Shown in pieces: positions 11,808 to 14,621 of a stretch of DNA of 33,085 nt. Position 1 is the stretch's first letter; each line of letters begins with the position of its first letter. The stretch lies in the NCBI GenBank assembly GCA_029258975.1, contig JAPDJS010000015.1, positions 1 to 33,085 on the forward strand. Direction: 5' to 3'. The translations under genes and the position numbers were made by a program. The notes below the pieces were generated by a model. That model saw nothing but the letters and a program-made list of their open reading frames with translations, searched no databases and was not told where the DNA came from. This stretch comes from Thermoplasmatota archaeon (lineage in GTDB: Archaea > Thermoplasmatota > B47-G6 > B47-G6B > 47-G6).

Positions 11808-14621
11808 TCAACCCTTAACCACACCAATAGGCACTAATCTAACTACAAGCTTACCTATACCTGCTCTATCGCTAACTCTAACTACTTCATCAATATCCTT
11901 ATATGCTCCAGGAGCCTCTTCGGCAACGACGCGCCAAGATGCAGCTCTCACTAAAATTCCTCTCCCTTCCAACTCCTTAGCTACCCGCTCCCCTCTGTAT
12001 CTACGAGTTGCAGCATGTCTGCTCATCTCCCTCCCAGCTCCATGAGCAGTAGAGTAGAATGTCTTCTTAGCCTCTTCATTACCAACTAGAACGTAGCTCG
12101 CTGTCCCCATACAACCAGGGATTAGAACTGGTTGACCAACACTTCTATAATCAGGAGGTATGTCTTCGCTTCCGGGAGGGAAGGCCCTCGTAGCTCCTTT
12201 TCTATGCAAGAAGCACTTAACTTTCTCCCCATTGATCTCATGCTCCTCTACTTTAGCAATATTATGAGCCACATCATAGATTACTTTCATTCCCAAGCTT
12301 TCTGGATCCTTCTTGAAGACTTGCTGGAAGCTCTCCCTAGTCCAATGGAGGATCATTTGCCTATTACACCAAGCATAGTTCGCTGCAGCACACATAGCCT
12401 TGAAATAACTCTCGGCCACATCGCTCTTCGATGGAGCATAAATTAGTTCCCTATCTGGGAGTTTAGAAACTAGATGATGATATTTCCTTTCCATTTCCCT
12501 CAAATAGTCTGAACAAACTTGATGACCGAGCCCACGAGAACCTGTGTGGATCATAACGGTAATTTGTCCTTCTTCCTCAATCCCAAAAACCTTAGCTACA
12601 GAGGGGTTATAGATCTTATCAACTTTTTGAACTTCGAGAAAGTGATTCCCAGCTCCTAAACTACCTAGTTGGGGCATACCTCTCTTTTTAGCAGTGTTCG
12701 AGACCTTTGTTGGATCAGCATGAGCTAAGCAACCTTTCTCCTCCAAATGTTCAAGATCCTCGTCCCAACCAAATCCATTTTCGACAGCCCACCTAGCACC
12801 TAATCTCAAAACTTGATCCAACTCGTTCATCGATACCCTTACCTTCCCACCTCTTCCCACTCCAGATGGAACATTTCTGAAAATAACATCAAGTAATTCT
12901 TTAAGCTTTGGACGTAGATCCTCTTCTCTCAAATTCGTCCTAAGTAAGCGAACCCCACAATTTGAGACTACAATACTATTAGCTACGAAATTGTGATCTT
13001 TATGGTTCACGGTGAAATCGTAAACAACTTCTCTTCTTCCTGTTTTAGTAATTTCCCTTATTTTCTCAAAGACAAACCCCGTTCTGCCTGCTTCGGAAAT
13101 ACACTTATTAACGAACTCTGGGAATTCAGGAAACTCAATCTTTCTGGATCTATTTTTTAACTCAGATTTATGCTTTTTCTTGATCCTCAGATATTGGGCT
13201 GCGAGATTCGCTAGTAAGCTCCTCTCCTTCTGATATTCGTAACCTATTTTCGACCATAGCTTAATGAGGTTCTCCTCTTTACTTGAAATCGTTAACCTCA
13301 GAATAGTTGTCTTTCTCTTCCTCTCAGCTACGTAGATCAAATTACTCTTTATTCCAAACTCCTCCAACAGTTTCCTTATCTCCCTCAAGAATTTAATTCC
13401 ATCCTCTTCCAACTCTTTGACTTTACCTATAGTTAGGTGAGGTTGTTCAAAAGTAAATTTACAGTCTTTTATTACATTAGGTTTTGAAAGTTCAGCACCA
13501 AAGAGTCCAGCTAGGAAATTTCTCTTGATCCAAAGAGGAGCGATCTTTATCCATTTGGGTACCCTAAGTCTCAACTTACTCTTATTGCCAATTGGTACAC
13601 CTAGGGCGGCTAGTAAGCTAGTAAAAGCTTTGGAACTTATGGTTATCGAATTTTCCACTCCTACACTCTTCCCAACCTTTCTCCTTCTCTTCCTTATTTT
13701 ACTTGGTTTAAAGCCAAGTTCAATTATATCCCTCCTAATTTCCTCCAAGCCCTCTACTTCTCCATAGATAATTGTAATTCTCCTCTTCCTCAAATTCCCT
13801 CTCTCTTTGGTTACATATTCCCTTAGGTGAGCGTCACCCATACAATAGCCAACCAATCTCGCTAAAATCCCTATCCTCTTATCATTCAAAAAGAGGGGTA
13901 ATAACTTTCTCTTCTTTAATTCTCGAGCTACATCCTCTTCGAAATCGGCTTCATCAAGTAATTTCTTAGCCTGTGGTTCTTCATACTCAACTCCCTCAAA
14001 TGGATAAACTGCTATTTCCTCACCAATTTTAACATTTCTCGCTTCCTTCATGCCTTCTCTAGTTAAAATAGGGTGATCTTCTGTCAATTCAATTTCTCTC
14101 CCTTCCTCCGTCACTAACTTTAATATCTCCTTGCCAGGAATCATGACGATGAAATTCTCTATCTTCGTAGAAGTATCTATATGATCATTCAACTCAAAGC
14201 ATTTCAAACATTCTGAATCCCAATCCTTAGAAAATTCCCTAATTTTCTTCCTATACCCATCTCTACTAAGAACTTCAATGTGCCCTGGAAGGCAATTTAT
14301 ATCCTAGCCCTGAAGATCAAAGTGATCTTCAGTATAGCCAATGCCTCCAGGGCTGATACACCCCTCTTCATAATCGATTGCAGCTACTCCTCCTATTGGA
14401 AATCCGTAGCCCTCATGACCATCTGGAAGAACGATCGAGTATTTGTAGATACCAGGCAAACAAGCTACTCCAGCAGCTTGTAATAGAGTTCTATCCTGTT
14501 TCATCTTCTCTAGTAATTTCTGAGATGCTATTACCCTCCCTGGAACCCTCATTCCAGGAATACTACCTTGAGGAATTTCCCATTCAATATCGCTCAGCTT
14601 CTTCAATTCTATTTTCATCAT
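11808..14621 (-). CDS. rtcB: RNA-splicing ligase RtcB, interrupted by a 30-nt intron-like insert and an intein
   Basis: RtcB joins 2',3'-cyclic phosphate (or 3'-phosphate) and 5'-OH RNA ends using GTP and Mn2+; in archaea it ligates tRNA exons after intron excision. The N-terminal part (14621-14334) runs from MMKIELKKLSDIEWEIP to PDGHEGYGFPIGGVAA and SPGGIGY. Continuing in the same frame is a 30-nt insert ending in TAG (14304-14333), then DIN (14303-14295), an intein (12960-14294), and the rest of the ligase from CGVRLLRTNL. Active-site motifs follow: LGSLGAGNHFLEVQ, MIHTGSRGLGHQV, DVAHNIAKVEEH and STAHGAGR, whose His is the guanylylated residue in known RtcB. Without insert and intein the protein is 482 residues, essentially the length of Pyrococcus RtcB. 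Read literally, translation would stop after 106 codons. ATG 14621 or the next ATG 14618 is the start. Archease is encoded 3 kb upstream. Confidence 0.93.
12960..14294 (-). other. RtcB intein with LAGLIDADG-type endonuclease domain, 445 aa
   Basis: Protein-splicing element inserted between DIN and the metal-binding Cys of CGVRLL; inteins at this RtcB site are known in Pyrococcus. It begins with Cys1 (CLPGHIEVLSRDG, block A), has block B with the TxxH motif (ELTEDHPIL), LAGLIDADG-like blocks LARLVGYCMGDAH and FLAGLFGAEL, and ends with VYDFTVNHKDHNFVA (block F) and NSIVVSN before the +1 Cys. The penultimate residue is Ser rather than the usual His. In the second LAGLIDADG block the sequence is G-A-E where D-A-D is typical, so nuclease activity is uncertain. 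The length, 1335 nt, keeps the frame. Confidence 0.94.
14304..14333 (-). other. Putative 30-nt BHB-type intron inside the RtcB catalytic motif
   Basis: On the minus strand, GGC TAT is followed by 30 nt ending GGC TAG, then GAT ATA AAT TGC. Deleting exactly 30 nt (phase 0) converts GGIGY-plus-stop into GGIGYDINC, the RtcB active-site motif. The insert contains a perfect hairpin (14310-14332): CTGAAGATCA, loop CTT, then TGATCTTCAG. Next to it, exon GGCU (14336-14339) can pair with intron GGCU (14306-14309) as a 4-bp helix (G.U, G-C, C-G, U.G). This leaves 3-nt bulges AUA and AGG, and the inferred cuts fall after the second base of each, the symmetric pattern of archaeal bulge-helix-bulge introns. 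A further GGAGGCA (14342-14348) with UGCCUUCC (14287-14294) can pair outside, separated by an internal loop, so the BHB is relaxed rather than perfect. Confidence 0.8.

What the first reader, a model, noticed from the sequence alone, without database searches (positions are those of the whole stretch)
14304..14333. 30-nt bulge-helix-bulge-like intron in rtcB, the gene for the ligase that joins such introns
Seen: a 30-nt in-frame insert ending in TAG splits the catalytic motif; its removal restores GGIGYDINC and a 482-residue RtcB. The insert forms a perfect 10-bp hairpin. It is flanked by a 4-bp GGCU/GGCU helix and 3-nt bulges AUA and AGG, with both cuts after the second bulge base. GGCTA occurs at both boundaries, but a DNA deletion between those repeats would leave GGC TAG, a stop, so only the symmetric RNA-type cut restores the frame. 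Known: archaeal BHB introns occur in tRNA, rRNA and a few mRNAs (cbf5 in Crenarchaeota), are cut by EndA and joined by RtcB. I recall none in rtcB. At 30 nt it would also be very small.
Basis: partly seen in the sequence, partly recalled or inferred. Interest (0 to 1): 0.95.

Follow-up and report, generated by a model that had tools for sequence, protein, structure and literature searches.

The report
Tiny spliceable introns in archaeal rtcB
In an uncultured archaeon the gene for the RNA-joining enzyme RtcB is interrupted by a 30-base hairpin with a stop codon; it is predicted to be cut out of the messenger RNA by the tRNA-splicing machinery, which likely uses that same enzyme, and similar tiny inserts sit in the same conserved stretch of the same gene in dozens of related archaea.

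Summary
On the minus strand, 14304-14333 is a 30-nt insert ending in TAG; removing it restores GGIGYDIN and a 927-aa ORF (482-aa RtcB plus a 445-aa intein starting 9 nt downstream). The insert has bulge-helix-bulge (BHB) anatomy. It is not a singleton: searches of 438 genomes in three DPANN phyla found inserts in the same motifs (DGH-x-GYG, GGIG-Y-DINC) in at least 37 of 412 genomes with an rtcB match. Forty distinct modelled introns in 33 genes, window included, are 21-33 nt long and share one BHB geometry: 40 have at least 3 of 4 central pairs, 27 have 4, and 38 have at least 5 inner pairs; after shuffling, a mean of 0.75 of 40 met both criteria. Exon and intron sides of the central helix covary. 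Twenty-six of 40 shift the frame and none has matching take-off and landing codons, against readthrough and ribosomal hopping. aEF-2 P-loop codons carry similar inserts, so rtcB is a hot spot rather than unique. A 99%-identical RtcB lacks insert and intein, so gain or loss is recent. Splicing is inferred; there are no RNA data. No report of rtcB introns was found in the held open literature.

The parts
14334..14621 (-). rtcB exon 1 (288 nt, codons 1-96, ends GGC TAT)
   Evidence: Pfam PF01139 match to the 105-aa fragment, E 2.1e-15
14304..14333 (-). 30-nt BHB micro-intron, ends in in-frame TAG
14336..14339 (-). 5' strand of the 4-bp central helix (GGCU, exonic)
   Evidence: pairs with 14306-14309
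14333..14335 (-). 5' bulge AU^A; predicted cut between 14334 and 14333
14310..14332 (-). intron hairpin: 10-bp stem CUGAAGAUCA/UGAUCUUCAG with CUU loop
14306..14309 (-). 3' strand of the central helix (GGCU, intronic)
14303..14305 (-). 3' bulge AG^G; predicted cut between 14304 and 14303
   Evidence: relaxed in the minimum-energy fold
14340..14352 (-). 5' strand of the outer exonic helix (CCCUGGAGGCAUU)
   Evidence: most of it folds with 14283-14294
14283..14294 (-). 3' strand of the outer helix (UGCCUUCCAGGG), inside the first intein codons
14295..14303 (-). rtcB exon 2, first part (codons D-I-N)
12960..14294 (-). RtcB intein, 445 aa, before the Cys of the DINC motif
   Evidence: PF14890 Intein_splicing, E 3e-15
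11808..12959 (-). rtcB C-terminal extein (CGVRLL ... GVVKG, stop)
   Evidence: PF01139 E 1.3e-152

Best explanation
The 30 nt at 14304-14333 are likely a bulge-helix-bulge micro-intron of the rtcB messenger RNA, predicted to be cut by the archaeal tRNA-splicing endonuclease (EndA) after the second base of each bulge and joined, probably, by RtcB itself. Shown from sequence: the insert ends in a stop; its removal restores the conserved motif; it has the BHB anatomy; and 39 further modelled inserts in relatives share geometry and size. Inferred: EndA cleaves it, RtcB carried over from the mother cell ligates the exons, the 30-mer is probably circularised, the spliced mRNA gives a 927-aa precursor, and the intein then excises itself to leave active 482-aa RtcB. 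Unspliced mRNA would give only a 105-aa fragment. Because the inserts are patchy, recent in this lineage and also present in aEF-2, I think they are mostly selfish or neutral elements tolerated at strongly conserved codons; a regulatory loop in rtcB is possible but secondary.
For: Exact restoration of GGIGYDIN. Stable fold, z -4.23. 40 distinct introns in 33 genes (43 entries, 3 duplicates dropped): 21-33 nt, median 31; central helix at least 3/4 in 40, 4/4 in 27; inner pairs at least 5 in 38. Shuffled intron cores met both criteria in a mean of 0.75 and at most 5 of 40 (1000 rounds). Covariation (5000 permutations each): C/D group 44 Watson-Crick pairs of 52 against a permutation maximum of 36 (this group pools neighbouring, non-identical sites); site B P 0.0044; site A P 0.04; the two-member class A2 is uninformative. 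Site B shows exon AAGG, AGGG, GGGG, TTGG with intron CCTT, CCCT or CCTT, CCCT, CCGA. 26 of 40 lengths are not multiples of 3; 39 of 40 carry a stop and the other shifts the frame. EndA family PF01974 in 30 of 32 intron-bearing genomes and 3 of 3 relatives. dN/dS 0.046 (L120/L125) and 0.036 (L152/L157), two pairs that share an intron.
Against: No RNA evidence. Only 2 of the window's 4 central pairs are Watson-Crick and the 3' bulge is relaxed in the minimum-energy fold. Cut placements were the best BHB among 1-6 protein-consistent ones (the null had the same freedom). At site A the outermost central pair is usually a G/A mismatch (47 of 60 paired; 13 of 15 introns have 3 of 4). A de novo scan for BHB-type ORF breaks gave no clear excess over decoys (bacteria 22 true, 26 decoy; archaea 17 true, 11 decoy), though its thresholds also missed the window's own intron and those of L056, L066, L069 and L070. 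The window's genome is not held, so neither its EndA nor a second rtcB could be checked; uninterrupted RtcBs 99% identical exist (P0001, P0002), and one intron-bearing genome, G445, lists a second full-length uninterrupted rtcB (52% identity). EndA was not found in G408 and G434. dS was saturated in 6 of 8 pairs and near saturation in the other two.
Confidence: 0.87

Rival explanations
1. Programmed ribosomal bypassing: the ribosome hops over the hairpin, as in T4 gene 60 or mitochondrial byps (recalled), without RNA cutting.
For: Hairpin-forming, stop-bearing inserts of 20-33 nt resemble byps in size (recalled); they lie in a conserved gene.
Against: Take-off codon equals landing codon in 0 of 40; 8 of 40 have no codon-phase placement at all. 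Hopping does not explain covariation between exon and intron sides of the central helix.
Confidence: 0.04
2. Decaying pseudogene or recent inactivating insertion; the cell relies on another RtcB copy or on a sister strain's allele.
For: P0001 and P0002 are 99% identical and uninterrupted; the window's genome is not held; G445 has a second, uninterrupted rtcB beside its interrupted one.
Against: The rest of the window's gene, intein included, is open. Apart from G445, no second long rtcB match is listed for the intron-bearing genomes. Random insertions would not be expected to carry a BHB anatomy.
Confidence: 0.06
3. Stop-codon readthrough or recoded TAG yields a longer RtcB with a 10-aa insertion.
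For: In the window the insert is in frame and has one TAG.
Against: 26 of 40 introns shift the frame, and TAA, TAG and TGA all occur in them; the insertion would split the DINC motif, which I recall as metal-binding.
Confidence: 0.01
4. Assembly or sequencing artefact.
For: The window is a contig with no genome held.
Confidence: 0.02

Closest known systems
cbf5 pre-mRNA introns of Desulfurococcales and Sulfolobales (Watanabe 2002; Yokobori 2009, PMC2738675, passages read)
   Same: BHB-like structure at exon-intron borders, archaeal protein-coding gene, patchy gain and loss; dependence of cleavage on EndA is reported for cbf5.
   Different: Different gene and lineages; several insertion points and up to two inserts per gene in rtcB; splicing was shown for cbf5 and is not shown here. 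In one DPANN phylum cbf5 itself looked rarely broken: 127 of 145 genomes matched, and of 13 loci flagged for stops that I fetched (other flagged rows, such as G361 and G367, not fetched) 11 have one long ORF.
Archaeal tRNA BHB introns (canonical hBHBh')
   Same: 4-bp central helix between two 3-nt bulges, cuts in the bulges, similar size.
   Different: In an mRNA, with the exonic side of the central helix made of protein codons.
5' UTR BHB intron of Haloferax volcanii HVO_1309 (PMC7714728, passages read)
   Same: EndA substrate in the transcript of a protein gene.
   Different: In the 5' UTR, not in codons; a circle and in vitro cleavage were shown there.
Putative 12-bp introns of an archaeal virus (Peng et al., as cited in PMC2738675)
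   Same: Very short inserts in protein genes.
   Different: 12 bp; splicing not demonstrated; mechanism unknown.
RtcB intein (adjacent, 14294-12960)
   Same: Interrupts the same motif.
   Different: Removed at protein level; open frame.

Membership tests
Archaeal BHB introns | 4-bp central helix flanked by two 3-nt bulges on opposite strands | tested here: met
   GGCU/GGCU, AUA and AGG; 2 of 4 pairs are G.U and the 3' bulge is relaxed in the minimum-energy fold
Archaeal BHB introns | Cuts after the second base of each bulge restore the mature sequence | tested here: met
   GGIGYDIN restored; the same rule serves 40 of 40 modelled introns, where the placement was chosen as best BHB among protein-consistent ones
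Archaeal BHB introns | Structure conserved by compensatory change | tested here: met
   permutation tests, (strong for the pooled C/D sites, moderate for B, weak for A, none for the two-member A2)
Archaeal BHB introns | Host encodes the splicing endonuclease | tested here: inconclusive
   PF01974 in 33 of 35 searched genomes, nearest named relative G001 included; not in intron-bearing G408 and G434; window's own genome not held
Archaeal BHB introns | Cleavage by EndA and joining by RtcB | not testable with these tools
   needs RNA or enzyme assays
cbf5 pre-mRNA intron | Located in cbf5 | tested here: not met
   gene is rtcB
Group I or group II intron | Match to a catalytic intron family | tested here: not met
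   only a tRNA reached an Rfam gathering score in the window; 30 nt is too short
Ribosomal bypassing element | Matched take-off and landing codons | tested here: not met
   0 of 40; window TAT/TAG
Intein | Open in frame and spliced as protein | tested here: not met
   insert has an in-frame TAG; the real intein is next to it

The most novel reading that the evidence does not exclude
A class of roughly 30-nt, structure-defined BHB micro-introns repeatedly invades active-site codons of housekeeping genes in DPANN archaea (rtcB and aEF-2 at least), moving by reverse splicing through EndA and RtcB. In rtcB the ligase's own mRNA is a ligase substrate, so RtcB can only be made by cells that already have RtcB; with the neighbouring intein the same motif is locked twice, at RNA and at protein level.
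Probability: 0.4. Interest if true: 0.95.

Novelty: new variant of a known kind. Interest (0 to 1): 0.87.

Why it matters
The passages read say that by 2009 archaeal pre-mRNA splicing had been confirmed only for cbf5, with introns predicted in a few other genes (PMC2738675), and in 2020 that the BHB motif was known in one mRNA, to which that paper adds a 5' UTR (PMC7714728). Here one gene shows dozens of candidate introns across three DPANN phyla, in phases that a gene caller would read as broken genes, so DPANN proteomes may be mis-annotated at important genes. It also makes the origin and spread of archaeal introns testable: positions are many and patchy, at least one is young, they share motifs with inteins, and in rtcB the spliced gene encodes the joining enzyme, a self-dependent loop.

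Tried and rejected
De novo scan: a script that looked for BHB-type ORF breaks in the window and in loci L001-L117 found no clear excess over decoys; its thresholds (3 Watson-Crick central pairs, 60-codon exons) also missed the introns already known there, so it is weak evidence either way, and I used homology only. Its one window hit (+ strand, 30727) I take as chance. Stop readthrough, bypassing, catalytic introns and inteins were rejected as told in the rival and membership sections.

rtcB as the only gene hit: rejected. Of 16 aEF-2 loci fetched, 9 carry a P-loop insert of 29-33 nt that one BHB splice explains (5 with 4 of 4 central pairs, 4 with 3 of 4; L168's inner stem is weak); L167, L168 and L181 are broken at DTPGHVDFGGDV in ways one splice does not solve; the P-loop of L178, L180, L181 and L182 was not solved; L175 looks like an intein; L173 has a lone stop. 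A general effect on all genes: not supported. uL2 matched in 138 of 145 genomes; 15 rows with a stop flag or a late start that I fetched show no stop inside the alignment; rows of G361 and G373 at contig starts and one weak second row of G324 were not fetched. cbf5: of 13 flagged loci, L194 has one weak 15-nt candidate and L193 is unresolved. rtcB in the phylum of G015: 27 of 29 genomes matched and no split or insert of this kind is listed; one has a lone TGA, not examined.

Of 47 regions fetched because rtcB looked broken or partial, 37 carry inserts and 10 do not show one (L131, L135, L136, L140, L146, L159, L163, L214, L215, L216; L131 and L146 hold runs of N and were left; L215 lacks the N-terminal part). 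Weak or contig-end rows (for example G021, G052, G102, G210, G273) were not examined, the tables were cut ('more matches are not listed'), and stopless in-frame inserts would be missed, so the counts are lower bounds. dN/dS was saturated in 6 of 8 pairs.

Full report
1. The observation. The window is an archaeal contig with a ribosomal-protein cluster and rtcB on the minus strand. The frame 14621-14304 ends in TAG after ...PGGIGYTEDHFDLQG; the frame that runs on to 11808 holds an intein and the rest of RtcB. Removing 14304-14333 gives GGIGYDIN-C and a 927-aa ORF; taking the 445-aa intein (14294-12960) out as well leaves 482 aa. Of 25 offsets tested for a 30-nt removal only this one gives the motif. 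The RNA folds with z -4.23.

2. A family, not a singleton. A search with the 105-aa truncated fragment listed 120 proteins; 18 of them, the window's own included, end at or soon after the GGIG motif without going on to D-I-N (contig ends not excluded). I then searched whole genomes with the 482-aa protein in three phyla: 144 of 147 genomes of the phylum of G001 (the genome of L001, Ca. Jingweiarchaeum) had a match, 142 of 146 in the phylum of G010 (genome of L061, a Micrarchaeota) and 126 of 145 in the phylum of G014 (genome of L024, an Aenigmatarchaeota). That these are DPANN phyla is recalled. I fetched 47 regions where the match was split, partial or held stops. Inserts were found in 13, 5 and 19 of these genomes, 37 of 412 in all. 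Outside those samples the window, L056 and L069 also carry them. In the phylum of G015 nothing of the kind is listed for the 27 of 29 genomes with a match. Of the 35 bacterial loci (by my reading of the titles) none shows such an insert; anchors were not recognised in some of them.

3. Anatomy. The inserts fall between DGH and GFPIGG or between GGIG and NC. A script listed cut placements that restore the protein and took the one with the best BHB. Forty distinct introns in 33 genes result (43 entries, three duplicates dropped). Lengths are 21-33 nt, median 31, and 26 of 40 are not multiples of 3; 39 of 40 bring a stop, the other (L127, second) shifts the frame. The rule is the same: four exon bases pair with four bases near the intron's 3' end, two bulges are cut after their second base, and a hairpin fills the intron. 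40 of 40 have at least 3 of 4 central pairs, 27 have 4 of 4, 38 have 5 or more inner pairs. With intron cores shuffled and the same freedom of placement, a mean of 0.75 and at most 5 of 40 met both criteria (at least 3 central and 5 inner pairs) in 1000 rounds. Seven more genes (L147, L148, L157, L158, L160, L212, L213) add eleven inserts with looser modelling or, for L212 and L213, by eye only, so the full tally is 51 in 40 genes.

4. Covariation. The exon side is bound by codons, and the intron side follows it: AAGG with CCTT, AGGG with CCCT or CCTT, GGGG with CCCT, TTGG with CCGA at the HEGY site; TAGG with CCTA, GGTT with GACT, GGCT with GGCT (window), TTCG with CGAA at the GGIG-Y-D sites; GGTC with GACA, GACC or GGCA and GGCC with GGCA or GGCT after DGH. 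Swapping intron sides between genes lowers pairing: the C/D group has 44 Watson-Crick pairs of 52 against at most 36 in 5000 permutations, site B P 0.0044, site A P 0.04, class A2 (two members) no signal. The C/D group pools neighbouring sites that are not identical, and near relatives count more than once.

5. History. On a tree of 114 RtcB C-terminal segments the presence of inserts needs 16 changes, at least 10 of them forced by well-supported branches. That run scored L147, L148, L158 and L160 as intronless, which one search corrected, and left out L123 and L141, so the numbers are approximate. The window's sister is L001 (80% over that segment), which has neither insert nor intein. P0001 and P0002, 99% identical proteins of 481 and 477 aa, have neither. 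Gain, or loss, is therefore recent. L148 has the window's layout (an insert in the GGIG-Y-D motif, then an intein at NC), and L056 appears to as well. L147 and L148, in the same supported set of five as the window, have inserts at the other motif with the same left border GGCTAT^A as the window's, which would fit movement between like sequences; this is only a lead.

6. Mechanism. EndA genes (PF01974) match in 33 of 35 genomes searched: 30 of 32 intron-bearing ones and 3 of 3 relatives; G408 and G434 have inserts but no match, and completeness is not told. An RNA-ligase family (PF09414) rings at E 0.001 in 14 of 37 genomes and over its cut-off in 8 of 37, G001 among them; several of those rows have the length of DNA ligases (about 560-590 aa; my reading), so RtcB is the likely ligase in most. 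From established knowledge, EndA leaves a 2',3'-cyclic phosphate and a 5'-OH, which RtcB joins. The predicted order is: cut, join, translate, intein excision. Every step after the sequence itself is inferred. Against sole dependence: G445 lists a second, uninterrupted full-length rtcB (52% identity), which may be a paralogue or a contaminant; no other intron-bearing genome lists a second long match.

7. Is rtcB special? aEF-2 in the 145 genomes of the phylum of G014 (141 with a match) also shows breaks. I fetched 16 loci: nine have a P-loop insert of 29-33 nt that fits the same BHB rule, three are broken at DTPGHVDFGGDV (L168 is in both sets), the others are intein-like, unresolved or a lone stop. 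uL2 shows none in 15 flagged or late-starting rows examined and cbf5 at most two candidates in 13 flagged loci examined. So rtcB and aEF-2 look like hot spots at highly conserved motifs, as inteins do. This is why I favour selfish or neutral elements over a dedicated rtcB switch.

8. Literature. Searches of the held open-access library listed no paper whose title or abstract start reports rtcB introns, for six direct phrases in full text, returned 0 papers. I read passages (not whole texts) of PMC2738675, PMC7714728, PMC12397907 and PMC13149111; the other papers I saw only as listings. Most subscription papers are not held, nor are bioRxiv preprints as such, so absence from print is not shown.

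Noticed in passing
L167-L182 (aEF-2 loci of genomes in the phylum of G014): aEF-2 genes with stop-bearing ~30-nt inserts at the P-loop (AHIDHGKTT) and, in L167, L168 and L181, breaks at DTPGHVDFGGDV; nine P-loop inserts fit the BHB rule.
   Followed up: partly
window 12960-14294 (-): RtcB intein beginning 9 nt after the intron; L148 has the same layout and L056 appears to.
   Followed up: partly
L147, L148: Inserts of only 16 and 26 nt at the HFGY-GFPIG site, with the same GGCTAT^A left border as the window's intron.
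   Followed up: no
G445:C44:2716-4170: A second, full-length and uninterrupted rtcB in a genome whose other rtcB is interrupted; paralogue or contaminant.
   Followed up: no
L008, L037 and G477 rtcB: A lone in-frame stop near the LGS-L-GAGNH motif without any insertion in L008 and L037; G477 has one TGA flagged, position not examined.
   Followed up: no
L072 (Halorubrum rubrum) 5230-5320: A one-base insertion (frameshift) in the same GGIGF-D motif; could be a sequencing error.
   Followed up: no
L193, L194 (cbf5 of G435 and G425): cbf5 reading frames that appear broken near the GTLDP motif; L194 has a weak 15-nt candidate.
   Followed up: partly
window 30727 (+): A BHB-like hairpin at the 3' end of the ORF 29654-30742 that would extend it by 83 codons; probably chance.
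   Followed up: no
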